Shown here piece by piece: positions 51,625-63,754 of a DNA stretch of 64,000 nucleotides. Each line of letters begins with the position of its first letter. Within the stretch, counting starts at the first letter, position 1. The notes below the pieces were generated by a model, which saw only the letters and a list, made by a program, of their open reading frames with translations, had not been told where the DNA came from and made no database searches. The stretch is from an uncultured Metabacillus sp. (GTDB lineage: Bacteria > Bacillota > Bacilli > Bacillales > Bacillaceae): assembly GCF_947503125.1 (NCBI RefSeq), contig NZ_CANNCR010000004.1, positions 124,001-188,000 on the forward strand. The letters run 5' to 3'. The translations under genes were made by a program, and so were the position numbers.

Positions 51625-52521
51625 TTATTTTTCTTCTACAAATGTATTGGTTAATGTACCTAATTTTTCAATTTCAACTGTGACTTCGTCTCCAGGCTGT
51701 ATATATACTTGCTTTTCAACAGGGTAACCTAAAACAACGCCTTCTGGGGTACCTGTTAAGATCACATCCCCTGGTGTAAGTGTCATATGCTGTGATATGT
51801 AACTAACAATTTCATCTACGTAAAAGATCATATCGGACGTATTTGAATCTTGGCGGACTTCACCATTTACATACGTTTTTAATTGAAGGTTGTTAGGATC
51901 CCCCACTTCATCCGCTGTTACGAGATATGGCCCCATCGGACTGAAATCATCACAGGTCTTGCCAAGCAGCCATTGAGGTGTTCTTAATTGTAAGTCACGT
52001 GCTGATAGGTCATTGACTGTGCAATAGCCGAATATATAATCCAATGCTTCATCTTTGCTTACATATTTTGCTTTTTTTCCAATAACGACACCCAACTCTA
52101 CTTCGTAATCTAATTGTTCGGTTACTTTTGGAACAGCAATTTCTCTTTTATGGCCAGTTAATGTATTATTAAATTTATTAAATAAAATCGGCACTTCCGG
52201 ATATGGAGCATTTGTTTCATCCGCATGCTTGCGATAGTTTAATCCGACACAAATGATTTTATTCGGTTGTGTGACACATGGTCCCCATTGAATTTCTTCT
52301 TCATTTTTTAGATATGCAGCATCATTCGATACTGAAAGAGTAGAAATATAATCTTCTAATTGAGAAACAGCTTCCTGACCGCCTGCAATAATTTCCATCA
52401 CATTTGGTTGAATTTGATCATTTGGTTTTTCACTTAAGGCTGCTTCAACGTCGATGATTCCTTTCTGAATTTTTACACCTAATGCTACCTTACCTTCTTT
52501 TATTAACGTTACGAGTTTCAT
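51625..52521 (-). CDS. Fumarylacetoacetate-hydrolase family protein, probable diketo-deoxy-fuconate hydrolase
   Basis: A 298-residue FAH-fold enzyme. The metal-binding glutamates are in DYEVELGVVIGKKAK near 138-152, with NDLSARDLQ near 173 and GPYLVTADEVGDPNNL near 197. The family cleaves carbon-carbon bonds of beta-diketo acids. As the last gene of a fuconate-type operon, the likely reaction is cleavage of 2,4-diketo-3-deoxy-L-fuconate to pyruvate and lactate. That assignment rests on neighbours. GAGGAGG precedes ATG 52521. Confidence 0.88.
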   Translation of the reverse strand: MKLVTLIKEGKVALGVKIQKGIIDVEAALSEKPNDQIQPNVMEIIAGGQEAVSQLEDYISTLSVSNDAAYLKNEEEIQWGPCVTQPNKIICVGLNYRKHADETNAPYPEVPILFNKFNNTLTGHKREIAVPKVTEQLDYEVELGVVIGKKAKYVSKDEALDYIFGYCTVNDLSARDLQLRTPQWLLGKTCDDFSPMGPYLVTADEVGDPNNLQLKTYVNGEVRQDSNTSDMIFYVDEIVSYISQHMTLTPGDVILTGTPEGVVLGYPVEKQVYIQPGDEVTVEIEKLGTLTNTFVEEK

Positions 52522-52572
52522 AGAAATTTCCTCCTCATTTTATTACGATAATCTGTGTGTCTTTTAAATCAG

Positions 52573-52594
52573 GCAATTGGAAGTCACCAATTGC
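52573..52594. other. Intercistronic stem-loop
   Basis: GCAATTGG (52573-52580) and CCAATTGC (52587-52594) are perfect complements with a 6-nt loop in the 168-bp gap between the SDR and FAH genes. No T-run follows, so RNA processing or stabilisation is more likely than termination. Confidence 0.4.
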
Positions 52595-52689
52595 TTCTAA
52601 TCTGTCCTCTGACCTCAAGAGCCGAAACAACTTTTGAAAACCTTTCTTGTATTCGGGCAAAAACATTTTCAAAAAATAACACTATTTAT

Positions 52690-53463
52690 TTATGCATCCT
52701 TGCCAAATACAACACCGCCATCAATATAAAGCGGAGAGCCCATCATAAACCTTGATTCTTCTGATGCTAGGAAAAGAGCTGCATAAGCCACATCCTCAGG
52801 TCTGCCTAAATCACCGCTTAATTGACGGGTCTTAATCTTTTCGATTGCTTCTTCCGGATTTTCATAAGATTGCTTTAAATAATTTTCTACAAAAGGAGTT
52901 AAGATGGTTCCTGGTAAGATCGCGTTTACACGAATATTGTAAGCAGCATAGTCAACCTGCATTGATTTCGTTAAGGCTAATATCGCACCTTTTGTGGTTG
53001 AATAGGATGCACGGTCAGCTAGTCCCATTTCGGCAATGCATGAAGACATATTAATAATGGAACCTTTCTTTTGTTCTATCATATGCGGGAGTACAAATTT
53101 GCTTGGCAGCATGACGCCATTGATGTTTACATTGATTGTTTTGTTCCACGCATCTAAATCTACTTCATGAAGCTTGCCGACTCCACTAATCCCAGCATTA
53201 TTAAACAATACATCAATACGTCCATATTTGGTTAGTACTTCGTCGACCATTACTTTAACAGAGCTTGCATCTGTAACATCGGCTTGAATGAAATAGGCAT
53301 CGCCATTTGCTTCTTGGATTTCGGTTACCGTTTCTTTGCCGCTCTCAGCATTTAAATCATTAACAATAACAGATGCTCCTTCTTTTGCAAAAAGTAAAGC
53401 TGTACATTTACCAATACCTGATCCGGCACCTGTAATCAGGATCACTTTATCTTTCAATCTCAT
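52690..53463 (-). CDS. SDR dehydrogenase, probable 2-keto-3-deoxy-fuconate dehydrogenase
   Basis: A 257-residue classical short-chain dehydrogenase. The NAD-binding motif TGAGSGIGK is near 11-19, NNAGISG near 88-94, Ser in INMSSC near 138, and the catalytic YSTTK near 153-157. Acidic NDLNAES after the second strand points to NAD(H) preference. Its place between UxaA-type dehydratase and FAH hydrolase fits oxidation of 2-keto-3-deoxy-L-fuconate to the diketo acid. Function is by context. Confidence 0.85.
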   Translation of the reverse strand: MRLKDKVILITGAGSGIGKCTALLFAKEGASVIVNDLNAESGKETVTEIQEANGDAYFIQADVTDASSVKVMVDEVLTKYGRIDVLFNNAGISGVGKLHEVDLDAWNKTINVNINGVMLPSKFVLPHMIEQKKGSIINMSSCIAEMGLADRASYSTTKGAILALTKSMQVDYAAYNIRVNAILPGTILTPFVENYLKQSYENPEEAIEKIKTRQLSGDLGRPEDVAYAALFLASEESRFMMGSPLYIDGGVVFGKDA

Positions 53464-53488
53464 ATTCTTTTATCCCCTCCTTCGTAGG

Positions 53489-54283
53489 TTAATGCTCCAA
53501 ATGATCATCTGGCTGTGCCGCTTTAACTGTTAAGCCGCCGTCAACCATTAATAAATGGCCATTAATTTGTTCCGCTTCATCTGAAGCTAAAAACACGACT
53601 GCATCTCCGATTTGCTTTGCTGTTCCCAACCGTTTCATCGGGTTTGCTTCAATTTCTTGGCGGCGGATTTCCGGGTCAGCAAGAAAATCGGTACACATAT
53701 CTGTATCAATCGTGCTTGGTCCCACTGCATTTACATTGATGTTATATTTCCCTAGCTCGATCGCCATCCCCTTTGTTAGCATATGACCGGCTGCTTTCGA
53801 TGCTTGATAATGCGGTATGACTGGACTTGTTACCATTAGGCTGGCAGTTGATAATATGTTAATGATTTTCCCATTGCGCTTAGGAATCATCCGTTTGGCA
53901 GCTAATTGAGATGTAAGGAATATCCCTTTTACATTTGTATTGAATGTACGGTCCCAAGTTTCTTCTGTTACTTGCATAAACGGCTCAAAAGGGGCAATTC
54001 CAGCGTTATTAACCAGGATTTCAATTTCGCCAAGCTGCTCCTCTACAGCAATGATCATAGCTTCCACATCCTGCTTCTTGCCAACATCGGCTTTTATCAC
54101 CATGGCTTTCCTGCCAAGCTCTTCTACCTTTTTCTGAACTGCTATTGCCTGTTCTCTTAGACTATCAGTGTAATAATTGATAGCTACATCTGCTCCTTCT
54201 TCAGCCAATCTCATGACGATCGCCTCTCCGATGCCACGGTTACCTCCTGTAACTAAAGAAATCTTATTTAGTAAGCGCTTCAA
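53489..54283 (-). CDS. SDR oxidoreductase, possible L-fucose dehydrogenase
   Basis: A 264-residue classical SDR. The cofactor motif TGGNRGIGE is near 12-20, NNAGIAPFEP near 91-100 and YQASK near 158-162. FabG-like proteins of this sort include fucose and other aldose dehydrogenases. Within this operon it could oxidise L-fucose to the lactone. The zinc dehydrogenase at 60136-61152 is an alternative for that step. Start TTG 54283 has AGGAG about 10 nt upstream. It lies 18 bp after the dehydratase stop. Confidence 0.85.
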   Translation of the reverse strand: MKRLLNKISLVTGGNRGIGEAIVMRLAEEGADVAINYYTDSLREQAIAVQKKVEELGRKAMVIKADVGKKQDVEAMIIAVEEQLGEIEILVNNAGIAPFEPFMQVTEETWDRTFNTNVKGIFLTSQLAAKRMIPKRNGKIINILSTASLMVTSPVIPHYQASKAAGHMLTKGMAIELGKYNINVNAVGPSTIDTDMCTDFLADPEIRRQEIEANPMKRLGTAKQIGDAVVFLASDEAEQINGHLLMVDGGLTVKAAQPDDHLEH

Positions 54284-54301
54284 TTTTATTCCACTCCTTC
54301 C

Positions 54302-55462
54302 CTATAAACTGATGCCAATTCTGCTGATACTAAATTCTTGATGACCTAAAATCTCTGCTTTTGTTAGTTGCCCAGATGCTACGCTGACAATTTCGTCAAA
54401 TATCCTTTCCCCGGCTTGATAAAGCGTTTCCTTCCCTTGTAAAACAGGACTTGTATCAACATCAATATTGTCTGCCATTCGCTTCGCCATGACTTCGTTC
54501 CCGGAAATCTTGATAACCGGAACAATCGGATTCCCAGTCGGTGTCCCTCTGCCGGTTGTAAAGCATACAAGCTGAATGCCGCCCGCTGCCATCCCTGTGA
54601 CACATTCAATATCATTTCCTGGCGAGTCCATAAAATAGAAACCTTTGCCTGGCACCTCACTGGCAAAATCAATGACACCTTGTAATGGAGCTGTACCAGC
54701 TTTACTTATACATCCTAATGATTTCTCCTCAATACTTGATAATCCTCCTTCAATATTTCCAGGACTAGGATTTCCGCCCCTCATATCAACCCCCATACGT
54801 TCGATCTCGGCTTCAAATTTGGCAATTGAATCATATAGCTTTTTCTTCACCTCTTCATTTACCGCTTTTTCAGCTAAAAGATGTTCCGCACCGATAATTT
54901 CAGTTGTTTCCCCCATGACGATGCTTCCGCCCTGTTTAATAATCAGATCCGATGTCACTCCTAAGGCAGGATTGCTGCATAACCCCGATGTGGCATCAGA
55001 TCCGCCGCATTTTACTCCAACAATTAGCTCTGAAAGAGAAATATCTTCATGTGGAATTTTTGCTATTTTTACTGAAAGTTCTTTTGCCAATTCTGTTCCT
55101 TTTTTTATAGTATTGACAGAACCGCCCTCGTCTTGAATATCAATCCATATCACCGGCTTTCCCGTCTCAGCAATTTCATCTCTAATTTGCTCAGCATTCA
55201 TAACCTCACAGCCAAGGCTTACAATTAAAACGGCACCAACATTCGGATTTTTTCCCATCCCAACAAGAACCTTATGTGTCCTTTCTTTATCATCACCTAC
55301 CTGGCTGCAGCCATGCTGATGCGGAATCGCTACCGATCCTGAGACCTGCTGTTGGATGCGAGTTACGACTTGATTGGCACAGATCACTGTCGGCATTAGC
55401 AGCAGATGATTACGGATCCCTACTTTCCCATCTGGTCTGCGATATCCTTTGATCATGGTCAT
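54302..55462 (-). CDS. UxaA-type dehydratase large subunit, probable L-fuconate dehydratase
   Basis: A 386-residue altronate/galactarate dehydratase-family domain (the C-terminal part of UxaA). Conserved blocks are RPDGKVGIRNHLLLMPT near 9-25, GCSQVGDD near 51-58, GVKCGGSDATSGLCSNPALG near 148-168 and FTTGRGTPTGNPIVPVIK near 300-317. The enzymes are iron-dependent. Related proteins in other anaerobes and Campylobacter act as L-fuconate dehydratases. It overlaps the small-subunit gene by 4 bp. Confidence 0.9.
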   Translation of the reverse strand: MTMIKGYRRPDGKVGIRNHLLLMPTVICANQVVTRIQQQVSGSVAIPHQHGCSQVGDDKERTHKVLVGMGKNPNVGAVLIVSLGCEVMNAEQIRDEIAETGKPVIWIDIQDEGGSVNTIKKGTELAKELSVKIAKIPHEDISLSELIVGVKCGGSDATSGLCSNPALGVTSDLIIKQGGSIVMGETTEIIGAEHLLAEKAVNEEVKKKLYDSIAKFEAEIERMGVDMRGGNPSPGNIEGGLSSIEEKSLGCISKAGTAPLQGVIDFASEVPGKGFYFMDSPGNDIECVTGMAAGGIQLVCFTTGRGTPTGNPIVPVIKISGNEVMAKRMADNIDVDTSPVLQGKETLYQAGERIFDEIVSVASGQLTKAEILGHQEFSISRIGISL

Positions 55463-55797
55463 ATTTTCACCTCTCCTTTTTCATGAAATGATTGATCTCC
55501 GCGGCCGCGAACACCGATTAGGTTATGTACATGAACATGCTCTCCTTGTTCAATGACTGCTGCAGCAACGCCAATTGACTCTCCATATTTAAGGATTGTT
55601 TCCCCAATTTCTATTCTTTTTAGAGCTAGTTTATGACCGAAGGCTACATCTTGTTTAGCTGTTAATGTACATATACGGTCTTCGATTTGAAATGATAGTA
55701 CCTCACCTTTACTGACCGAGCGCAGCAATGTGACAACGCTATCATTTCGATTCATCACAATACATGAGATTCCTTCAGCAAATGATTTCTCATCCAT
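55459..55797 (-). CDS. UxaA-type dehydratase small subunit (SAF domain)
   Basis: A 112-residue SAF-domain protein. In single-chain UxaA this domain is the N-terminus; here it is a separate gene, as in several two-gene UxaA-type enzymes. It has the typical FGHKLALKRIEIGETILKYGE segment near 68-88, written here only as a marker of about 20 residues, and HVHVHNL near 93-99. It heads the operon and is divergent from an AraC-family regulator. AAGGAAG precedes the ATG. Confidence 0.9.
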   Translation of the reverse strand: MDEKSFAEGISCIVMNRNDSVVTLLRSVSKGEVLSFQIEDRICTLTAKQDVAFGHKLALKRIEIGETILKYGESIGVAAAVIEQGEHVHVHNLIGVRGRGDQSFHEKGEVKI

Positions 55798-55878
55798 ATC
55801 TTTTTCTTCCTTTCAATCGAAAGTTATTCCTTATTTATCAGTCTATCAGCAGTATATTGTTATAAAAATTGCCAAAAT

Positions 55879-55905
55879 TGACTTCTTTGTATCAAATTTT
55901 GATAT
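55879..55905. promoter_or_regulatory. Near-palindrome in divergent fucose promoter region
   Basis: TATCAAATTTTGATA (about 55890-55904) is palindromic but for the centre. It follows a TTGACT -35-like hexamer (about 55879-55884) in the gap between the dehydratase and AraC genes. It is a candidate operator. Confidence 0.35.
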
Positions 55906-55944
55906 ATTATAGAAATAAGAGTATGAGTGAGGTGTTCGTTAAAA

Positions 55945-56814
55945 ATGATGCCAATTCGAAAACAATTTGAATCTGAAAAATCATTTCCTTTCCAAATGGT
56001 CTATAAACAAACGAAAGGACTTCAGCATGAACTGCCTGAGCATACTCATGAATGGTTAGAAATTGTGATGATTCATGAAGGAAAAGGGACATTTTTCATT
56101 GACCAAACGTTTTATGATTTACAGAAAGATGACCTGATCATTATTCCAAGTAATACGATCCACCGTGGCATACCAGATAAGGGTCATTCCCTCACATCAA
56201 CTGCTATTTTCTTTAGTCCCGCCCTACTAAATAATTCTATTTTTGGAAAGAGTTTTTTATATTTGAAGATTTTTGAGGAATCAAAGAAAGAGAAGAATTA
56301 TAAATACTCATTAGAATCAAACCATCTCCTTCAATTAAAAGAATATATCGATACGCTTATGAATGAAGTGGAGACAGAAAACCCGGACCAAGTGAATGCC
56401 ATCCTTTTATGGTTGCATGTGACATTGCTTCATCTAAATCGACATTGCCTTACCTGGAAAAGAAGAGTTACTAACCAAGTCTCCTCTTTCGGTCCCGAAT
56501 GGTTTAAAGCAGCATTAATTTATATTGATCAACATTTAAACTCGAATTTAGATTTAAATTCACTCTCAACACGGTTTTCCGTTTCAGCTGCTCATTTTAG
56601 CCGTGTCTTTAAACAGCTGATTGGCATTAATGTGACTGATTATATTGCTATGAAACGGATTTTATTAGCAAAGGACCTTCTTAGTAGTGGTAATGAAAAG
56701 ATTTCAATAGTTGCAGAACAATGTGGATTTACGAGTATGCCCCATTTCTTTCGAACATTTAAGAAGCTGACCTCGATGACACCATCGGAGTATCGTAAGA
56801 AGATGAGTATGTAA
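55945..56814 (+). CDS. AraC-family regulator of the fucose-type operon
   Basis: About 289 residues. The cupin sensor is at about 20-90 (HEGKGTFFIDQTFYDLQKDD near 50-69), and the double helix-turn-helix is at about 190-285 (LDLNSLSTRFSVSAAHFSRVFK; ISIVAEQCGFTSMPHFFRTFK). The start is ATG 55945 with GAGGTG about 10 nt upstream; a GTG at 55927 would overlap that site. Divergent from the dehydratase operon, it is its likely activator; the ligand would be L-fucose or a pathway intermediate. Confidence 0.9.
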   Translation: MMPIRKQFESEKSFPFQMVYKQTKGLQHELPEHTHEWLEIVMIHEGKGTFFIDQTFYDLQKDDLIIIPSNTIHRGIPDKGHSLTSTAIFFSPALLNNSIFGKSFLYLKIFEESKKEKNYKYSLESNHLLQLKEYIDTLMNEVETENPDQVNAILLWLHVTLLHLNRHCLTWKRRVTNQVSSFGPEWFKAALIYIDQHLNSNLDLNSLSTRFSVSAAHFSRVFKQLIGINVTDYIAMKRILLAKDLLSSGNEKISIVAEQCGFTSMPHFFRTFKKLTSMTPSEYRKKMSM

Positions 56815-56822
56815 AAACATAA

Positions 56823-56918
56823 TGCGGCTGTCTCAGTTTCCTTATACACATATTATAGAGGACCATATGAAATCCTTTATAGTAAGGTTTACTTTAGAGG
56901 CAAATTGAGACAGCCGCA
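56823..56918. repeat. Nested long hairpin beside repeat copy C
   Basis: Perfect 13-bp outer arms TGCGGCTGTCTCA (56823-56835) and TGAGACAGCCGCA (56906-56918), with inner CCTTA/TAAGG and TATAGAGGA/TCCTTTATA arms. It lies 9 bp after the AraC stop. It may act as that gene's terminator, but the size and nesting are unusual. Confidence 0.6.
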
Positions 56919-56935
56919 ATAGCTATTTATAAAAA

Positions 56936-57055
56936 AAGCGCAAGGCGCCTGCCTATCGGCGACAAGCATAAGGCGAACAGGAATAGAAGGTGTACTTTAC
57001 CTTCAATTCCTGTTTGACTTATGACCTCGAGCCGATGGCGCCTGGAGCTAGATTC
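56936..57055. repeat. Long-hairpin repeat, copy C
   Basis: About 120 bp with stacked stems: GGCGCC/GGCGCC, ATCGGC/GCCGAT, CATAAG/CTTATG and the core AACAGGAATAGAAGGT (56976-56991)/ACCTTCAATTCCTGTT (56999-57014), ending in GGCGCCTGGAGCTAGA. It is the best-formed of the three copies. Confidence 0.7.
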
Positions 57056-57264
57056 AGAAACGCAAGCTATGTTAAGAAAATATATAAATTCTGATATTAT
57101 AAGAAAAGGTTTTTCAACCTTTTAATAGGAGATAACTAGAAAGTCAAAGATTTGAAAAGCAATTAATTGTTATCACGTTGTTTCGCACGTGATTTTCCAC
57201 CTTTTTCCCGCTTTACACAACAGTAAAACAAGCCCTATATGTCTTCTTCAAAAAAAAGGAAAGA

Positions 57265-57284
57265 CTGCCAGGTTTCCTGGGCAG
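57265..57284 (-). terminator. Terminator after the L,D-transpeptidase gene
   Basis: CTGCCAGG pairs with CCTGGGCAG around a TTT loop (one bulge), and on the minus strand a T-rich tail follows. Other small hairpins (57105-57123; 57173-57194) lie in the same gap, unexplained. Confidence 0.6.
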
Positions 57285-57300
57285 CCTATTGGTTTTTCGT

Positions 57301-58308
57301 TTATTTTCTTAATTCTTTTTTAGTAACCGGTCCAACTGTGCCATCTGCTACTAGACCGTGCGCCTTTTGAAATTGATGCACTGCTCGTTCTGTGTTTGCT
57401 CCAAATATTCCATCGACGCCTTTTGTATTATACCCTTTAGCAGTAAGAATACGTTGCAACTCCTTTACTGCGGCGCCTCTGTCCCCTCTTTTTAAACTGC
57501 CGCTCTTGAATAAGTCTGAACCCTCTGAAGAAGAAGGCGATGTTGGCTTCGTCACCGTTGTGCCACCTAGCGCTTTTCTCGTTGCAGGACCGACAATCCC
57601 ATCTACTACTAGATTTCGAGCTCTTTGAAATTGGCGAACTGCTTTGTCTGTATTTGAACCAAATATTCCATCGATCCCTTTCGTGTTAAAACCTAATGCC
57701 GTAAGCTTTCTTTGCAGGTCTGCAACAGATGGCCCTCTGTCCCCTTTTTTCAGAATGGACCCATTTGCCGTAACTGGAACTGAACCTTCAGTAACCTTGT
57801 ATCCGTAAGAAACGGCTATCGAATCAAAGGATTTTCCAGAAGAAACAATAATAACTGGCGTATTAACTGGTACTTGATTGTACAGCCATTCCACCTCATT
57901 ATCAAACATTCGTACACAGCCGCTGCTCACATAGCCGCCAATTGAGCTAGGATTATTGTTGCCGTGAATCGCGTAGGTCGTTCCCCATGTTCCCCTGGCA
58001 TTTATTCCAAGCCATCTGTTGCCAAGTGGATTACGCGGATCCCCGCCTGGAATCCCCCCTGTGTAATAGGGTCTATTTTTAATCTTGTTGACGATTTTAA
58101 ATTTTCCCTCTGGTGTTAACGATTGACTTCTTCCCGTTCCTACCTTAAATACTTTTTTTAGCTGATTATTTTCATAATAAGCAAGCTGATTAGTTGCCTT
58201 ATTGATGATAATAAATTTGTTGCCTGCTGCAGAGCTGGAAGAGATCTTTCCAACACTAAAAAACATAAGAATGGCCATTAAAAAAAGTAAAAAACATTTT
58301 TTAATCAA
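57301..58308 (-). CDS. Secreted L,D-transpeptidase with two peptidoglycan-binding domains
   Basis: A 335-residue exported protein: signal peptide at 1-28, YkuD catalytic domain at about 30-155 with HGNNNPSSIGG near 113 and the nucleophile Cys in SSGCVRMFDNE near 131, then two PG_binding_1 repeats (about 185-245 and 275-332, each with the GxDGIFGxNTxxAVxxFQ pattern). It forms 3-3 crosslinks or attaches proteins to the cell wall, and is often spore- or wall-related. It interrupts the fucose cluster and seems functionally unrelated. Confidence 0.93.
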   Translation of the reverse strand: MIKKCFLLFLMAILMFFSVGKISSSSAAGNKFIIINKATNQLAYYENNQLKKVFKVGTGRSQSLTPEGKFKIVNKIKNRPYYTGGIPGGDPRNPLGNRWLGINARGTWGTTYAIHGNNNPSSIGGYVSSGCVRMFDNEVEWLYNQVPVNTPVIIVSSGKSFDSIAVSYGYKVTEGSVPVTANGSILKKGDRGPSVADLQRKLTALGFNTKGIDGIFGSNTDKAVRQFQRARNLVVDGIVGPATRKALGGTTVTKPTSPSSSEGSDLFKSGSLKRGDRGAAVKELQRILTAKGYNTKGVDGIFGANTERAVHQFQKAHGLVADGTVGPVTKKELRK

Positions 58309-58433
58309 TGCTGTTCCCCCCTAAGTTGTCGATACAATTAATTAGACGGCATGATATAAAAAAATGTTTTATGTTTTTTTGAATTTTTTGGAAACAATTT
58401 CCGACCATTTTCTTAAAAAAACGCAAAAAAAGC

Positions 58434-58458
58434 GGCTGACTCTTCATTTGAGTCAGCC
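58434..58458 (-). terminator. Terminator after the SGNH esterase gene
   Basis: GGCTGACTC (58434-58442) and GAGTCAGCC (58450-58458) are perfect arms; on the minus strand seven T follow. Confidence 0.8.
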
Positions 58459-58471
58459 ACTAATTTTTTAC

Positions 58472-59095
58472 TTATTTTAAAAGCTCTTCAACAGTTCGAA
58501 GCCACGTAGTTGCCATTAGCATATTCCCAGCTGAATTCATATGAACACCGTCTGTTGTAAGTTTATATGTACTTTCAGATTGTAAATACTCGATAAATGC
58601 TTTATGAGTTGGAATGAGTGTCGCCTCAAATGCTTTAGCAAGTTGATGGACAATTTCCACATAGTCCTTTAATAGTTTATTTCCTGTTGAGTTAACATCC
58701 TCATCAATAATCGTTGGTTCCATTAAAAGAATGTGTGCATTTGTTTCTTCTTTTACTTTTGTTAAAAGTTCTTTGTACACGCTGGAGAACTTTTCAGGAA
58801 GTACTTGCTCAATTTCAGGACGATCAAGTTGTCTCCATACATCATTTATTCCTATTGAAATGGAAACATAATCAGGTTGGTGGTCAATAACGTCTGTTTG
58901 CCATCTTGCAGCCAAGTCCGTGACTCTGTTTCCGCCTATACCTGTATTAACAATTTGATAGTTAGCAGAAGGGTAGGTTGTGATTAAATAATCATGGATA
59001 AGTCTTACATACCCATTTCCTAATCCCTCTTGGTCTTCTCGTCTGCCGCAATCTGTAATACTATCGCCAATCAGTAAAATCTTCCTCGTTTTCAT
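58472..59095 (-). CDS. SGNH/GDSL-family esterase
   Basis: About 207 residues, no signal peptide. SGNH blocks are visible: GDSITDCG (Ser) near 9-16, IGGNRVTD near 56-63, ISIGINDVW (Asn) near 82-90 and DGVHMNSAGN (Asp/His) near 185-194. The group includes acetyl esterases on sugars and glycans. The start is ATG 59095, preceded by AGGAG. As the last gene of a run with the lactonase, dehydrogenase and fucosidase, it may deacetylate a substituted fucose oligosaccharide, which is inference. Confidence 0.85.
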   Translation of the reverse strand: MKTRKILLIGDSITDCGRREDQEGLGNGYVRLIHDYLITTYPSANYQIVNTGIGGNRVTDLAARWQTDVIDHQPDYVSISIGINDVWRQLDRPEIEQVLPEKFSSVYKELLTKVKEETNAHILLMEPTIIDEDVNSTGNKLLKDYVEIVHQLAKAFEATLIPTHKAFIEYLQSESTYKLTTDGVHMNSAGNMLMATTWLRTVEELLK

Positions 59096-59185
59096 TTTTA
59101 TTCTCCTCTTAATATTGTATTTCATTTCTAAGTAAATTAATTTTACATCTATTCATGAAATACCTGCTTCTTTCACTTATTTCTT

Positions 59186-60019
59186 TTATTCTTTAATGGA
59201 ATAAAATCTGGCACAGTTCTCTCCTAAAATACGATGTTCGGACTCAGGTGCATATTGTTTTACATAATCAAGAACAATCTCCAAAACTGATTCATAATGA
59301 CCACTGACCGTACAAACCGGCCAATCTGATCCAATCATGATTCTCTCAGGCCCGAATGCTTCAAATACAATATCGAGATAAGCCTTAAAATCTGCTTTTC
59401 TCCAATTCTTCCAATCTGCTTCTGTTACCATCCCTGATACTTTTACATAGACGTTTTTGTAATCCGACAGCTTCGTAATATCTTCTTGCCATGGCGACAA
59501 TACTTCATTTTTTATATCCGGTTTACCGATATGATCTAACACAAAAGGTTGATTCGGAAATGTTTCAACAAGCTGGCGGGCATAAGGAAGATGCTTTGGA
59601 AAGAGTAACAGATCATATGTAAGACCAAAGTCATGTAACATACTGATGCCTCTTTGAAAATCTTCCCTTAGCATAAATCGTTCATCTGGTTCATCATGTA
59701 TGATATGGCGAACTCCTTTAAAATAAGGATTTTCCGCAAATTGCTTCAATTGTTCGCTTATATTAGGCGAGCATAAGTCAACCCAACCAACGACCCCTTT
59801 GATAAAGTCGTGTTTCTGTGCTAATTCCAAAAGCCAGCTTGTTTCCTCTAAGCTTTGTCTTGCTTGAACAGCAACTGTACCGTCAAAATGAATGGTTTTT
59901 AATAATACGTTAAGATCTTCTGGCAAAAAATCTTGTTTTAATTTTGACATGTCATTGTTAATCCAGCCATATTCCGTTTCATTATAAATCCAAAAATGGT
60001 GATGTGCATCGATCTTCAT
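59186..60019 (-). CDS. Amidohydrolase-2 family lactonase, probable L-fucono-lactonase
   Basis: About 277 residues, a TIM-barrel metal hydrolase. The HxH motif is in KIDAHHHFW near 2-10, and later metal or active-site residues include HIIHDEPDE near 102-110, VLDHIGKPD near 162-170 and MIGSDWPVC near 237-245. This subfamily includes L-rhamnono- and L-fucono-lactonases, which open the lactone made by sugar dehydrogenases. The start is ATG 60019, with GAGGGG upstream; the TTG 60043 is less well placed. Context supports L-fucono-lactone as substrate. Confidence 0.87.
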   Translation of the reverse strand: MKIDAHHHFWIYNETEYGWINNDMSKLKQDFLPEDLNVLLKTIHFDGTVAVQARQSLEETSWLLELAQKHDFIKGVVGWVDLCSPNISEQLKQFAENPYFKGVRHIIHDEPDERFMLREDFQRGISMLHDFGLTYDLLLFPKHLPYARQLVETFPNQPFVLDHIGKPDIKNEVLSPWQEDITKLSDYKNVYVKVSGMVTEADWKNWRKADFKAYLDIVFEAFGPERIMIGSDWPVCTVSGHYESVLEIVLDYVKQYAPESEHRILGENCARFYSIKE

Positions 60020-60135
60020 AACGTATTTTCCCCTCACTTCCAAGTTTTTTCCTTAAAGATTTCTATGGTCATTTTCCCCTGGTTTTGTCCTTTAGAAGTT
60101 TTCTAACTCCCTTTCACAGTATCTACTCCCCAACT

Positions 60136-61152
60136 TTATTCTCGATCAATGATCGCCTTAATCACATTTGACTGCGGTAAAAGCCACTCCGCAAACTGTT
60201 CAGTCACCTCGTTAAAAGAGCATCGATGTGTAATCAAAGCTTCTAAATGAATTTTTTTCGCTTTTACGGCTTCCATTACATTATTAAAATCCTCTTTTGT
60301 CGCATTTCGACTCGCCATTAGTGTCAGCTCTTTTTTATGAAAATCCGGATCATGGAAGGTAATATCGCCCTTTACCAAGCCGACAAATACTAATGTGCCT
60401 CCATGTGCTGCGTATTGAAAAGCTTGATTCATCGATTGCATGTTTCCTGTAGCATCAAAAACAAAACTAGGGAAATCTCCATCCGTTATTTCTGATAACT
60501 GATTAATAGGATCATTTTTTGCATTGACTGTTTCATCAACATTTGCCCAACTTCGGCAAAACGCAAGCCTTTCTTCATTAATATCCATTGCGATGACATG
60601 TGCTCCACGGTATTTTGCGAAAGCCATAACTCCAAGGCCAATCGGTCCTGCACCGATGACTAAAACCTTATCACCTTCCTTTAAGGATGAACGGCGAACA
60701 GCATGGGCACCGATCGACATCGGCTCTAGCATGGCTGCTTCATCTAGTGATATATCATCGGTTTTAATTAAATGGCTGACAGGTACAGCTAATGTTTCAC
60801 ACATGCCGCCATTCTTATGAACCCCAATAACATGAAGTTCTGTACAGCAATTTGTTTTTCCTGTTTTGCAGGCAATGCATTTTTCGCAATGCATGTATGG
60901 AATAATCGCAACTTGATCTCCTGTATGGAATCCCCTATCATTTTCTTCGACTTCTTCAATTACTCCTGATAATTCATGTCCTAAAATTCGCGGGTAGGTA
61001 AAAAATGGCTGGTTTCCTTTATATGCGTGTATATCTGTGCCGCATATGCCAATCCGCTTTATAGTAATTAATGCCTCTCCGCTTCTTAACTCAGGCTTTT
61101 CTGTTTCAATGATTTGTAAGTCATCTGGCTTTTGGCAAACGATTGCTTTCAT
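60136..61152 (-). CDS. Zinc-dependent alcohol dehydrogenase (MDR), possible L-fucose dehydrogenase
   Basis: A 338-residue medium-chain dehydrogenase. The catalytic zinc site is GICGTDIH near 36-43 with GHELSG near 57-62. The structural zinc cysteines are in CEKCIACKTGKTNCC near 88-102, and the Rossmann motif is GAGPIGLGVMAF near 169-180. It resembles sorbitol, threonine or galactitol dehydrogenases acting on a polyol or sugar carbon. Lying between the lactonase and fucosidase, it may oxidise L-fucose at C1. Either it or the SDR at 53489-54283 could fill that role. Confidence 0.88.
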   Translation of the reverse strand: MKAIVCQKPDDLQIIETEKPELRSGEALITIKRIGICGTDIHAYKGNQPFFTYPRILGHELSGVIEEVEENDRGFHTGDQVAIIPYMHCEKCIACKTGKTNCCTELHVIGVHKNGGMCETLAVPVSHLIKTDDISLDEAAMLEPMSIGAHAVRRSSLKEGDKVLVIGAGPIGLGVMAFAKYRGAHVIAMDINEERLAFCRSWANVDETVNAKNDPINQLSEITDGDFPSFVFDATGNMQSMNQAFQYAAHGGTLVFVGLVKGDITFHDPDFHKKELTLMASRNATKEDFNNVMEAVKAKKIHLEALITHRCSFNEVTEQFAEWLLPQSNVIKAIIDRE

Positions 61153-61197
61153 GTGTATCTCCTCCTAAGATAAAATAATTATCTGGACTCCCCCATT

Positions 61198-61211
61198 TGA
61201 AAACCCTTTCA
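61198..61211. promoter_or_regulatory. cre-like site upstream of the zinc dehydrogenase
   Basis: TGAAAACCCTTTCA matches 13 of 14 cre positions; the central CG is CC, so it is weaker. It lies 46 bp upstream of the start. Confidence 0.4.
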
Positions 61212-61293
61212 AAATAGTATCATGTATATAAAGATATAAAAATAACTAATCCTGATGTTTTTATACCTTTTGATGATCATTTATAAGTAAAAA

Positions 61294-61327
61294 AGCAGGC
61301 TCGTATGTATAAAATACGTAGCCTGCT
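61294..61327 (-). terminator. Terminator after the GH95 gene
   Basis: AGCAGGC (61294-61300) and GCCTGCT (61321-61327) with inner GTAT/ATAC pairing; on the minus strand a T-run follows. It ends the fucosidase transcript, so the dehydrogenase has its own promoter. Confidence 0.75.
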
Positions 61328-61357
61328 ATCTAATCACCGAGCTAGTTCAATATTATC

Positions 61358-63754
61358 CTATAAAGCTGCAGTTTTTATCGGACGAATAGTATAAGATTCT
61401 CTTGCTTTAGTTGAAAAAGCAATCAAGCCATTTGCTATATCTTCAGTATCGATCACGCTCTCTCCTGCTTTTACTTCTACAGAATTTTCGATGTTAATAA
61501 CGCATCTCTCTCCTTTTAAAGAACGGATCACGACTACTTTCAATTGTTTATTCTCCCACTCTATATCTATCTCAAAACTGCCTCGTGCCCTAAGTCCCCG
61601 GACATAGCCATTAGGCCATGCATCAGGAAGTGCCGGCAAGAACTGAATGCCCTCTGTATGGGATTGAAGGAGTAATTCAGCAAGCCCGGCCACAAAACCA
61701 AAGTTCCCATCAATTTGAAAGGGCGGATGGGCATCAAAGAGGTTTGGATAAACACCGCCTTTGTGATAATTTGTCTTATTTTCCTCATTGACAAGCTGAA
61801 GTAAATTTGAAATCAAATCTAGTGCACGATTTCCATCTTTAAATCGAGCCCATAATGCTATCTTCCAAGCAAGGCTCCAGCCCGTTCCTTCATCTCCTCT
61901 TCGTAAAAGCGACTGTTTAGCGGCCTCAAATAATTCAGGTGTTTCATGATCAGTAAACTGTCTGCCCGGATATACACCAAAGAGGTGTGAGACGTGACGA
62001 TGGTTTATTTCTTGATCCTCCCAATCTTTTATCCATTCCTGAAGCTGACCATATTGACCAATCTGAAGAGGGAAGAGCTTAGATCTTTTTTCTTCTAATT
62101 CTTTACAGAATTCTATGTCACAATTTAACTCTTTTGTTGCTTCTATACAGTTTGTGAATAAATCCCATATTAACGTTAGATCCATTGTAGCGGCCATACT
62201 AATCGCTGCCAGTTTTCCATTTTCGGTTACAAATTTATGTTCAGGGGATGTTGAAGGCGCTGACACAAAGTATCCGGCTTCATCCTCTATTAACCAATCG
62301 ATACAAAATAGTGCTGCTTTTTTCATGATTGGGTATGCTTTCTCACGTAAAAATTGCTTGTTACGGCTAAAGGCAAAGTGCTCCCATAAATGCTGTGATA
62401 GCCACGCTCCCGCCATCGGCCAAAATGTCCAAACCGGATCACCATGTCCATAGGCACCTACTGGAGCAGATTGACGCCAAATATCTGAATTATGATGTGC
62501 CGTCCAGCCTCGGCAACCATAATTTATTTCGGCTGTTCTTTCCCCGTTAAGGGATAGCTCCTCTATAAACGTAAGGAGTGGTTCATGGCATTCTGCTAGG
62601 TTACAGGTTTCAACAGGCCAATAATTCATTTGTGCATTAATATTTAGTGTATAATTACTGCTCCAAGGCGGTTGAAGCATATCATTCCATATGCCTTGTA
62701 AATTAGCTGGCTGTGTTCCGGGACGAGAGCTTGTGATCATTAAATATCTGCCATAATGAAAAAGCAGCTCCACTAATTTGGGATCACTTGCTCCATATTG
62801 TTCAATCCATTGGTCTGTCGAAATCTCTTCCTTTACAAAAGAAGGACCCAAATCAAGTTCTACACGATTGAAAAGTGAAGTGTAGTCCCTTATATGATTT
62901 TCTCGAAGTTTTTCAAACGTATGTTTTTTCGCATCTTTCAAGTATTTCATAACAGCTATGGAAGGAGCTTTTCCTTCTTTACGTGGGGATTTATCGTATC
63001 CATTGAAACTCGTGGCGGCAGAAAAAAACAGTGTAGCTGCTGTTGCTTGCTTAATCTGCAGACCTTCATCATTAAGCTCGTAAAAACCATCTTCTAATTT
63101 AACAGCCAACCTTCCTTCGAATGTAATAGAATTACCAGTTTCCTCTTGAGCATATTGGATTGGCTGATCATTTTCTCGGAAATAATTCGGATCTACATTC
63201 TCCGGGCAAATTCCTTTGAGAATGAGCTCTTCATCTGAACTCTCTGTAACAGACTGAAGCAAGCTATTTAATCTAGCCGTAAAATTAAGCTTCCCCTCTT
63301 TATTTGCCTTAAGATGAATAACAATCACTTGATCCTCAAAAGATGAAAACATCTCGCGTGTGTATGTAACATCATCAATCATATACTGTACACGAGCGAT
63401 GCCATCCTTTAAATCAAGACCGCGTTTATAATCACTTAGTCTCCCAATGTGATCAAATGTTAAAAGCAGATCCCCTAATGGTAAATACGATTGTGTATAC
63501 GGTCCCATCATTTTCTTAGCCAGTTGATCTGCCTCTACATATTTCCCAGCAAATATTAGTTTTCTCATTTCAGGTAAATACTTTTTGGCTTCTGGATTGT
63601 TCCAATCTTTTGGACTTCCTGACCATAATGAATCCTCATTCAATTGCACTCTTTCCAATTCTACCCCGCCAAAAATCATCGCTCCTAGCCGGCCATTTCC
63701 GATAGGAAGCGCCTCAGTCCATGATTTCGCACTTGTTTGATAGGTTAATTTCAT
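61358..63754 (-). CDS. Alpha-L-fucosidase, GH95
   Basis: A 798-residue enzyme. The N-terminal beta-sandwich begins with WTEALPIGNGRLGAMIFGG near 12-30, which is standard for GH95. An (alpha/alpha)6 barrel follows, with YTLNINAQMNYWPVET near 365-380 (catalytic Asn pair), HRHVSHLFGVYPG near 585-597 with the acid Glu just before, and IDGNFGFVAGLAELLLQSH near 675-693 (Asp). The beta-sandwich C-domain ends at 798. There is no signal peptide, so it hydrolyses imported fucosides inside the cell. GH95 enzymes prefer alpha-1,2-linked L-fucose (or L-galactose). It heads the fucose island; GGGGG precedes ATG 63754. Confidence 0.93.
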   Translation of the reverse strand: MKLTYQTSAKSWTEALPIGNGRLGAMIFGGVELERVQLNEDSLWSGSPKDWNNPEAKKYLPEMRKLIFAGKYVEADQLAKKMMGPYTQSYLPLGDLLLTFDHIGRLSDYKRGLDLKDGIARVQYMIDDVTYTREMFSSFEDQVIVIHLKANKEGKLNFTARLNSLLQSVTESSDEELILKGICPENVDPNYFRENDQPIQYAQEETGNSITFEGRLAVKLEDGFYELNDEGLQIKQATAATLFFSAATSFNGYDKSPRKEGKAPSIAVMKYLKDAKKHTFEKLRENHIRDYTSLFNRVELDLGPSFVKEEISTDQWIEQYGASDPKLVELLFHYGRYLMITSSRPGTQPANLQGIWNDMLQPPWSSNYTLNINAQMNYWPVETCNLAECHEPLLTFIEELSLNGERTAEINYGCRGWTAHHNSDIWRQSAPVGAYGHGDPVWTFWPMAGAWLSQHLWEHFAFSRNKQFLREKAYPIMKKAALFCIDWLIEDEAGYFVSAPSTSPEHKFVTENGKLAAISMAATMDLTLIWDLFTNCIEATKELNCDIEFCKELEEKRSKLFPLQIGQYGQLQEWIKDWEDQEINHRHVSHLFGVYPGRQFTDHETPELFEAAKQSLLRRGDEGTGWSLAWKIALWARFKDGNRALDLISNLLQLVNEENKTNYHKGGVYPNLFDAHPPFQIDGNFGFVAGLAELLLQSHTEGIQFLPALPDAWPNGYVRGLRARGSFEIDIEWENKQLKVVVIRSLKGERCVINIENSVEVKAGESVIDTEDIANGLIAFSTKARESYTIRPIKTAAL

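What the first reader, a model, noticed from the sequence alone, without database searches (positions are those of the whole stretch)
51625..63754. Non-phosphorylating L-fucose pathway with GH95 fucosidase in a Bacillus-like genome
Seen: a two-part UxaA-type dehydratase, two SDRs, an FAH-family hydrolase, a lactonase-type amidohydrolase, a zinc alcohol dehydrogenase, a GH95 fucosidase, an SGNH esterase and a divergent AraC regulator, almost all on the minus strand. Known: this set matches the oxidative route L-fucose, fucono-lactone, L-fuconate, 2-keto-3-deoxy-L-fuconate, diketo acid, pyruvate plus lactate described in other bacteria, with UxaA-type fuconate dehydratases known from Campylobacter-like islands. 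Inference: the locus is such a pathway. The phosphorylating isomerase/kinase/aldolase genes and a transporter are not in the window.
Basis: partly seen in the sequence, partly recalled or inferred. Interest (0 to 1): 0.75.

Follow-up and report, generated by a model that had tools for sequence, protein, structure and literature searches.

The report
Fucose-burning operon in a Bacillus relative
A Bacillus-like bacterium carries neighbouring genes that very probably take up fucose-bearing sugar chains, cut off the fucose and oxidise it to pyruvate and lactate without first adding phosphate; the pathway is already known, so this is a good new example rather than a new kind.

Summary
The core (two-part UxaA-type dehydratase, two SDRs, FAH hydrolase) is a conserved operon in Bacillales. 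Three results point to L-fucose. First, 5 of 5 orthologous loci found in the same family carry a FucU-type mutarotase, a fuconolactonase-type gene and an alpha-L-fucosidase (GH95, or GH29 in two); 0 of 7 paralogous UxaA loci carry any of these. Second, one SDR has the R-T-Y-R signature of type 2 L-2-keto-3-deoxyfuconate 4-dehydrogenase and is 73% identical to its best homologue in Paenibacillus ehimensis NBRC 15659, the strain whose type 2 enzyme was assayed; but one paralogous cluster without fucose markers has that signature too. Third, no L-fucose isomerase was found in the genome, while L-rhamnose isomerase lies elsewhere. Two corrections: a sugar ABC transporter (no ATPase gene beside it) begins 93 bases past the window's end, and FucU, present here in relatives, is deleted, though another contig carries one. 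Pathway, type 2 dehydrogenase and two-subunit dehydratase are in print: new member of a known kind. L-galactose or D-arabinose as further substrates are not excluded. No enzyme activity was shown here.

The parts
51625..52521 (-). FAH-family hydrolase, proposed L-2,4-diketo-3-deoxyfuconate hydrolase (FucG)
   Evidence: PF01557 264 bits; 2,4-didehydro-3-deoxy-L-rhamnonate hydrolase model NF053535 240 bits, under its cut-off of 500; L-2,4-diketo-3-deoxyrhamnonate hydrolase 8gsr E 2.7e-57
52690..53463 (-). SDR_B, proposed NAD-dependent L-2-keto-3-deoxyfuconate 4-dehydrogenase, type 2 (FucF)
   Evidence: R151-T186-Y195-R213 pattern with Tyr154 and Lys158; 73% identity to the best homologue in P. 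ehimensis NBRC 15659, next best there 41%
53489..54283 (-). SDR_A, proposed L-fucose 1-dehydrogenase (FucA)
   Evidence: passes only the broad subfamily model NF005559 'glucose 1-dehydrogenase' (234 bits, cut-off 215), as SDR_B does too; nearest specific sugar model L-rhamnose 1-dehydrogenase Lra1 215 bits, cut-off 400; absent where another SDR stands beside the lactonase in 3 relatives
54302..55462 (-). UxaA-type dehydratase large subunit, proposed L-fuconate dehydratase (FucC)
   Evidence: PF20629 + PF04295; four Cys C28, C52, C85, C152 shared with the genome's full-length UxaA
55459..55797 (-). SAF-domain small subunit of the dehydratase
   Evidence: PF08666; overlaps the large subunit gene by 4 bases
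55927..56814 (+). AraC-type regulator, divergent from the dehydratase operon
   Evidence: PF12833, PF02311; conserved in place in three same-genus relatives, L038-L040
58431..58461 (-). terminator-like hairpin (12-pair stem, T tract) after the GH95-to-esterase unit
   Evidence: pattern scan; the total of terminator-like matches in the region equals chance (8 found, 8.2 expected)
58472..59125 (-). SGNH/GDSL esterase, perhaps deacetylates the imported oligosaccharide (inference)
   Evidence: PF13472 91 bits
59186..60043 (-). amidohydrolase, proposed L-fucono-1,5-lactonase (FucB)
   Evidence: NF052480 271 bits, under cut-off 400; only close solved structure 4dlf (with 4dlm, 4dnm, 4do7), E 3e-53
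60136..61152 (-). zinc medium-chain dehydrogenase, role open (accessory sugar or sugar-acid dehydrogenase)
   Evidence: best model PRK10083 under cut-off, best structure RspB 4ilk; found in 3 of 28 and 2 of 52 named loci
61358..63754 (-). GH95 glycosidase, proposed intracellular alpha-L-fucosidase
   Evidence: PF22124 610 bits; first domain starts at residue 3, so no room for a signal peptide; 2rdy (BH0842) 1014 bits, catalytic Asn pair and Glu aligned with 4ufc

Best explanation
This is a non-phosphorylating (route 3) L-fucose catabolic locus, probably in two transcription units. Unit A (GH95, zinc dehydrogenase, lactonase, esterase, with a sugar ABC transporter just upstream, beyond the window) imports a fucosylated oligosaccharide, deacetylates it and releases L-fucose inside the cell. 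The sugar is oxidised to L-fucono-lactone (SDR_A, with an alternative SDR elsewhere in the genome), hydrolysed to L-fuconate (lactonase), dehydrated to L-2-keto-3-deoxyfuconate by the two-subunit UxaA-type enzyme, oxidised at C4 by SDR_B and cut by the FAH hydrolase into pyruvate and L-lactate. Shown here: gene content, conservation, synteny and the ligand pattern of SDR_B. Inferred: every enzyme activity, the import step, the transcription units, the assignment of the two SDRs to steps, and regulation by the divergent AraC protein.
For: Family assignments. Orthologous loci in the family: FucU, lactonase and a fucosidase in 5 of 5, against 0 of 7 loci of the 52-55% paralogue. Of 80 named loci, FucU lies within the held flank (up to 10 kb) in 21 of the 28 in the window's clade and in 2 of the other 52. 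GH29 stands in place of GH95 in two relatives. SDR_B: type 2 L-KDFDH pattern, RTYR in 70 of 71 homologues at 60% identity or more, window included; assayed type 2 enzyme from P. ehimensis NBRC 15659 (PMC11199699, section 10), where the best homologue is 73% identical and the next 41%. No FucI match in the genome; RhaA on contig 3 and a uxaCBA-like locus on contig 22. FucU and an SDR matching the L-fucose dehydrogenase model below cut-off on contig 102.
Against: FucU is deleted from this locus. Lactonase, FAH and SDR_A score below the curated cut-offs of the specific fucose or rhamnose models. The RTYR pattern also occurs in the SDR of paralogous cluster L045 (66% identical to SDR_B), which has no fucose marker, so the pattern alone does not fix the substrate. 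GH95 has the Thr found in the L-galactosidase (PMC4491172), although PMC8245568 argues that this residue does not decide. Of the other 52 named loci only 7 have any of FucU, GH29, GH95 or lactonase nearby. The zinc dehydrogenase has no place in the minimal pathway.
Confidence: 0.85

Rival explanations
1. The main substrate is L-galactose (or L-galactose and L-fucose alike), released by GH95 acting as an alpha-L-galactosidase on plant glycans; the same enzymes take the 6-hydroxy analogue through the same steps.
For: GH95 includes an L-galactosidase with the same Thr (PMC4491172, passages). A member of the UxaA/GarD superfamily was assigned to L-galactonate (PMC6336799 section 8, unpublished data there). 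The X. campestris L-KDF dehydrogenase also acts on the L-galactonate and D-arabinonate analogues (PMC13406643, passage).
Against: FucU and, in two loci, GH29 fucosidases next to the orthologous operons. Thr-bearing XacAfc95 is fucose-specific (PMC8245568, passages).
Confidence: 0.09
2. The locus is an L-rhamnose pathway of the LRA type.
For: SDR_A and FAH have L-rhamnose models among their nearest; FAH is close to 8gsr and SDR_A to 7b81 (that 7b81 is a rhamnose dehydrogenase is recalled). The last intermediate is shared by the two routes (PMC11199699 section 3).
Against: SDR_B has the L-KDF ligand pattern, while L-KDR dehydrogenase has opposite C4 stereoselectivity and, in a putative structure, other ligands (PMC11199699 section 14). 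The genome has rhamnose isomerase elsewhere. Fucosidase and FucU neighbours in relatives.
Confidence: 0.02
3. Uronate or aldarate degradation (altronate or galactarate dehydratase).
For: The only NCBIfam hit of each subunit is galactarate dehydratase.
Against: 261 and 29 bits against a cut-off of 731. The same genome has a full-length UxaA in a uxaCBA-like locus and another UxaA set on contig 25. The 52-55% paralogues, not the window's group, sit with an aldehyde dehydrogenase in 7 of 7 loci, annotated as alpha-ketoglutaric semialdehyde dehydrogenase in a Priestia plasmid copy of that group.
Confidence: 0.02
4. Two unrelated neighbouring operons: a GH95 glycan operon and a separate sugar-acid operon fed from outside.
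For: A terminator-like hairpin and a YkuD gene lie between them. Two Peribacillus loci have the dehydratase, SDR_B and FAH without SDR_A, lactonase or FucU; in L063 a gene that looks like an MFS transporter by eye follows.
Against: In relatives fucosidase, lactonase and core genes lie on one strand, in some with the fucosidase or lactonase right before the dehydratase genes (L081, L073, L064).
Confidence: 0.04

Closest known systems
Route 3 non-phosphorylating L-fucose pathway (FucM-A-B-C-F-G) with Paenibacillus ehimensis PEH01S_RS21285 as assayed type 2 L-KDF dehydrogenase (PMC11199699; sections 3, 10, 14 and passages seen)
   Same: Same proposed step order; SDR_B has the type 2 pattern and is 73% identical to the best homologue in that strain; the P. 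ehimensis locus L101 has the same five core genes.
   Different: The window has GH95, esterase, zinc dehydrogenase, lactonase and AraC next to the core; at L101 none of these gave a match of 30% or more in the held flanks. FucU is absent from the window's locus. That L101's SDR is PEH01S_RS21285 is inferred from strain and similarity, the tag was not checked.
Two-subunit UxaA-type L-fuconate dehydratase of Paraburkholderia mimosarum (A19U_RS0100650/655; PMC6336799 section 8, assigned there by gene context)
   Same: Heteromeric UxaA/GarD superfamily enzyme in a route 3 L-fucose cluster.
   Different: Sequences not compared here: it did not come up under its name or 47 (one search lists 40 of 313 records).
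Campylobacter jejuni fuc locus (cj0480c-cj0489; PMC6946681, passages)
   Same: Non-phosphorylating, with a dehydratase, the SDR FucX, a hydrolase and a mutarotase.
   Different: The model there ends with an aldolase-type enzyme (Cj0481), the window with dehydrogenase plus FAH hydrolase; C. jejuni lacks a fucosidase (PMC7685106, abstract in the listing). Sequences not compared here.
BH0842 GH95 (2rdy)
   Same: Closest solved GH95 by sequence, 1014 bits over residues 2-790.
   Different: Its substrate and gene context were not examined.

Membership tests
Route 3 non-phosphorylating L-fucose pathway | FucF: L-KDF 4-dehydrogenase with Ser-Tyr-Lys and one of four ligand patterns (type 2 = R-T-Y-R) | tested here: met
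   R151-T186-Y195-R213, Tyr154, Lys158; RTYR in 70 of 71 homologues at 60% identity or more, RTFR in one; R151 and R213 align with Arg170 and Arg231 of 4dqx. The pattern is also in one paralogous cluster without fucose markers (L045)
Route 3 non-phosphorylating L-fucose pathway | FucC: L-fuconate dehydratase | tested here: inconclusive
   UxaA/GarD family and four Cys kept; substrate cannot be read from sequence
Route 3 non-phosphorylating L-fucose pathway | FucG: FAH-type 2,4-diketo-3-deoxyfuconate hydrolase | tested here: inconclusive
   PF01557 met; rhamnonate-hydrolase equivalog 240 bits, cut-off 500
Route 3 non-phosphorylating L-fucose pathway | FucB: L-fucono-1,5-lactonase | tested here: inconclusive
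   best family is NF052480 but 271 bits, cut-off 400
Route 3 non-phosphorylating L-fucose pathway | FucA: L-fucose 1-dehydrogenase | tested here: inconclusive
   SDR_A passes only a broad 'glucose 1-dehydrogenase' subfamily model (234 bits, cut-off 215), which SDR_B passes too, and no equivalog; in 3 of 28 loci it is absent and another SDR stands beside the lactonase, never both
Route 3 non-phosphorylating L-fucose pathway | FucM/FucU mutarotase at the locus | tested here: not met
   no FucU match in the window, deleted between FAH and the next gene; a FucU above cut-off (149.4 bits, cut-off 141) lies on contig 102
Route 3 non-phosphorylating L-fucose pathway | no phosphorylating isomerase | tested here: met
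   PF07881 has no match in the genome while found in 3 of 14 control genomes; kinase and aldolase were not searched
GH95 | catalytic domain, Asn pair and general acid Glu | tested here: met
   PF22124 610 bits; N-x-N and Glu aligned with 4ufc, residue roles from PMC4491172
GH95 alpha-L-fucosidase (against alpha-L-galactosidase) | releases L-fucose | not testable with these tools
   Thr at the polymorphic position is not decisive (PMC8245568)

The most novel reading that the evidence does not exclude
The locus is a joint L-fucose and L-galactose salvage route for plant cell-wall oligosaccharides: GH95 releases either sugar, SDR_A and the zinc dehydrogenase are two entry dehydrogenases of different preference, and the two-subunit dehydratase and SDR_B carry both sugar acids to pyruvate plus L-lactate or L-glycerate.
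Probability: 0.15. Interest if true: 0.42.

Novelty: new member of a known kind. Interest (0 to 1): 0.3.

Why it matters
It shows a pathway described mainly from Proteobacteria and Campylobacter as a conserved operon in many Bacillales genomes and gives a nearly complete, testable set: import, fucosidase, esterase, oxidation and cleavage. It also shows how such bacteria could use fucose without FucI, and offers Gram-positive examples of the two-subunit UxaA-type fuconate dehydratase, whose relatives in the plasmid records that I saw are named 'UxaA family hydrolase', 'galactonate dehydratase' or 'altronate dehydratase family protein'.

Tried and rejected
Rejected: GH95 Thr/His as a specificity marker (PMC4491172 suggests it with reserve, PMC8245568 contradicts it). 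Rejected: using NCBIfam names of SDR_A, FAH and lactonase as function calls, because they miss every specific (equivalog) cut-off. Led nowhere: promoter and terminator scan as a whole (35 promoter-like found, 39.0 expected; 8 terminator-like, 8.2 expected). The plasmid collection gave no relative above 52.6% (313 records, all under 60%), so the Paraburkholderia and Campylobacter enzymes could not be aligned; six hits were opened, one without annotation, and none of the other five showed a fucose locus. The Watanabe JBC 2020 paper is not held; the Mol. Microbiol. 2019 and BBB 2024 papers on UxaA-type and novel fuconate dehydratases were seen only as references.

Limits of the counts: one search found 89 relatives and kept the best 80; 13 of these 80 loci are shorter than 21,000 bases because a contig ends, so absences there are weak. 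The presence counts mean a blastp best hit of at least 30% over 60 residues within the held flank. At that threshold FucU is 3 of 52 in the other clade, one of them (L093) a weak 32% match; clustering gives 2 of 52. SDR_A is 23 of 28 at that threshold, 22 at 60% identity (L069 is a distant SDR). Most lactonase hits outside the nearest relatives are only 36-44% identical. The 28/52 split is by identity (73% or more against 67% or less) and agrees with a quick tree (support 84 for the window's side, 95 for the other; SH-aLRT only, long outgroup branches). The 28 include one record titled Paenibacillus and one Brevibacillus; 48 of the 52 are titled Paenibacillus. L057 and L058 are taken to be the same contigs as G067 and G052 because the contig lengths are equal, so these two loci appear in both the family count (5 of 5) and the named count. 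In one search the seven paralogous places are the long ones; two fragments (in G065 and on G000 contig 14) were left out of the 0 of 7.
Full report
OBSERVATION. The window is contig C4:124001-188000 of a 5.44-Mb draft genome. On the minus strand, read in the direction of transcription, they are: GH95, zinc dehydrogenase, lactonase-type amidohydrolase, GDSL esterase; then a YkuD/peptidoglycan-binding gene; then the dehydratase small subunit and large subunit (overlapping by 4 bases), SDR_A, SDR_B and FAH, with gaps of 18, 25 and 168 bases. The AraC gene is divergent, 129 bases from the small subunit gene. A terminator-like hairpin with a T tract follows the esterase gene, though the number of such matches in the region is no more than chance; I read it as two transcription units, by inference.

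BEYOND THE WINDOW. The contig goes on for 20.5 kb. Starting 93 bases past the window's end lie a solute-binding protein, two sugar-type ABC permeases with no ATPase gene beside them in the stretch read, and a large AraC-type regulator with a Cache-like domain, all on the same strand. Permeases of this group (48-67% identical) also lie near the orthologous dehydratase in 7 of 28 named loci (an eighth match is only 30%) and in G045 and G050 (54-55%). The first GH95 domain starts at residue 3, so there is no signal peptide; import of an oligosaccharide before cleavage is the natural reading (inference).

CONSERVATION. The large subunit was searched in 80 genomes of the family, the window's own among them (59 of 80 have a match at E 0.001). 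Orthologues at 82-94% identity occur in five other genomes; a paralogue group at 52-55% occurs full-length in seven places, and full-length altronate-type enzymes at about 40% are common. Of the orthologous loci, 5 of 5 carry FucU, the lactonase and a fucosidase; of the paralogous ones 0 of 7 carry any of the three. The FucU reading is strong: 154.6 bits against a cut-off of 141 for L-fucose mutarotase (locus L038). Three loci have GH95, while G045 and G050 have GH29 (PF01120, 291 bits in L041; 95% identical in L042). Two unrelated fucosidase families in the same setting are hard to explain unless the sugar is fucose. In G050 (L042) SDR_B is cut short and FAH was not found.

NAMED RELATIVES. 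One scan of the genome collection gave 89 relatives, the best 80 kept, all with titles of Bacillales organisms. In the tree 28 of them group with the window (32 rows with the window and three unnamed ones), and 52 form the other side, 48 of these titled Paenibacillus. All five core genes are present in 23 of 28 and 36 of 52 (22 of 28 if the weak SDR_A match in L069 is dropped). FucU, GH29, GH95 or lactonase: 26 of 28 against 7 of 52. The window's nearest rows are Bacillus sp. SA1-12 (94%) and Metabacillus bambusae (93%). Against a sweeping claim: most Paenibacillus-side loci lack fucose markers in the held flanks. Yet the one assayed enzyme that very probably belongs to that side acts on L-KDF (below), and LutB-type L-lactate oxidation genes (13 of 52 loci; TIGR00273, 553 bits against 444.8 for one representative) lie near the core in some of them, which fits lactate as a product.

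SDR_B AS L-KDF DEHYDROGENASE. PMC11199699 (sections 3, 10, 14 and passages seen) describes type 2 L-KDF dehydrogenase with the pattern R-T-Y-R and gives kinetics for PEH01S_RS21285 of Paenibacillus ehimensis NBRC 15659; it names Arg170 and Arg231 of 4DQX as the likely type 2 ligands. Window SDR_B aligns R151 and R213 with these and has T186 and Y195; 70 of 71 homologues at 60% or more (window included) are RTYR, one RTFR. The best homologue in that very strain is 73% identical and the next 41%, so it is very probably the assayed protein, but the locus tag could not be checked here. The paper states that the L-rhamnose counterpart has opposite stereoselectivity at C4, which argues against rhamnose. 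A caution: the SDR of the paralogous cluster in L045 (66% identical) is also RTYR, in a locus without fucose markers, so the pattern may fit several 2-keto-3-deoxy acids of the same C4 configuration.

ENTRY STEP. SDR_A is present in 22 of 28 loci at 60% identity. In L064, L066 and L069 another SDR stands beside the lactonase instead, and no locus has both; L080 has a more distant SDR, and L063 and L065 have neither. That third SDR lacks the RTYR pattern (NGWS). The window's genome has a close copy of it (64-67% identical) next to a FucU (149.4 bits, cut-off 141) on the 8.1-kb contig 102; it matches the L-fucose dehydrogenase model at 195 bits, under its cut-off of 300 and behind several generic SDR models. 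So this genome may have two L-fucose dehydrogenases (inference).

FucU LOSS. Between FAH and the next gene the window has 144 bases. Both flanks align to G067 at 91% and 87%, and about 560 bases that hold FucU there are missing here. As FucU follows FAH in the three same-genus loci, this is best read as a deletion in the window's lineage, perhaps covered by the copy on contig 102.

DEHYDRATASE. Four Cys (C28, C52, C85, C152) are shared with the full-length UxaA of the genome's uxaCBA-like locus (the names uxaB and uxaC there are from reading the sequences, not from a family search), matching by order and rough spacing the four superfamily Cys listed in PMC6336799 section 8; the enzyme of that paper was not itself aligned. 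That paper names a two-gene L-fuconate dehydratase in P. mimosarum by gene context.

ALTERNATIVES. Rhamnose isomerase is on contig 3, a full-length UxaA on contig 22, no FucI match anywhere. L-galactose and D-arabinose share the relevant stereochemistry (established knowledge) and are likely side substrates; GH95 does not settle it. A second GH95 and a GH29 lie elsewhere in the genome.

NOVELTY. The pathway, the type 2 dehydrogenase from Paenibacillus and the heteromeric dehydratase are in print. My searches for a Bacillaceae account (open-access full text only; 18 of 18, 10 of 12, 4 of 4 and 8 of 28 papers listed) showed none, as judged from titles and the starts of abstracts. New member of a known kind.

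Noticed in passing
L006 6011-8631 (contig C25 of the window's genome); L140, L149, L150, L151: A UxaA set of large subunit, SAF subunit, second large subunit in which the four conserved Cys are divided: one large subunit keeps the first three and loses the fourth (and the CGGSD motif), the other keeps only the fourth. The C25 locus and 4 of 4 haloarchaeal plasmid loci examined show the same complementary split, in opposite gene order. It suggests a metal site put together from two unequal subunits. Among 80 family genomes only the window's own has the close three-Cys type; all other matches are 31-34% identical. One literature search (8 of 119 papers listed) showed nothing on it.
   Followed up: partly
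L137 6980-8140: A Variovorax UxaA-type large subunit aligns with only the fourth of the four Cys, next to a small UxaA-family partner.
   Followed up: no
window 57301-58308: A YkuD-type protein with peptidoglycan-binding repeats (named by eye) sits between the two sugar units and stays there in three same-genus relatives; no link to fucose seen.
   Followed up: no
L050 6354-6665 (contig C14): A fragment of the 52-55% UxaA paralogue with stops inside, next to an intact aldehyde dehydrogenase gene: a decaying sugar-acid cluster whose counterpart in G067 (L044) has full-length subunits.
   Followed up: no
L042 15274-15603: In G050 SDR_B is cut short and no FAH gene was found between it and FucU, so that copy of the pathway looks broken.
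   Followed up: no
L090, L098: In these Paenibacillus loci LutA/LutB/LutC-like L-lactate oxidation genes and an IclR-type gene run directly into the core operon (LutB passed a curated model for one representative from L096, the LutA and LutC names are partly from recall).
   Followed up: partly
L063, L065: Peribacillus loci have dehydratase, SDR_B and FAH but no SDR_A, lactonase or FucU match, and in L063 a gene that looks like an MFS transporter by eye follows: perhaps uptake of the sugar acid itself.
   Followed up: no
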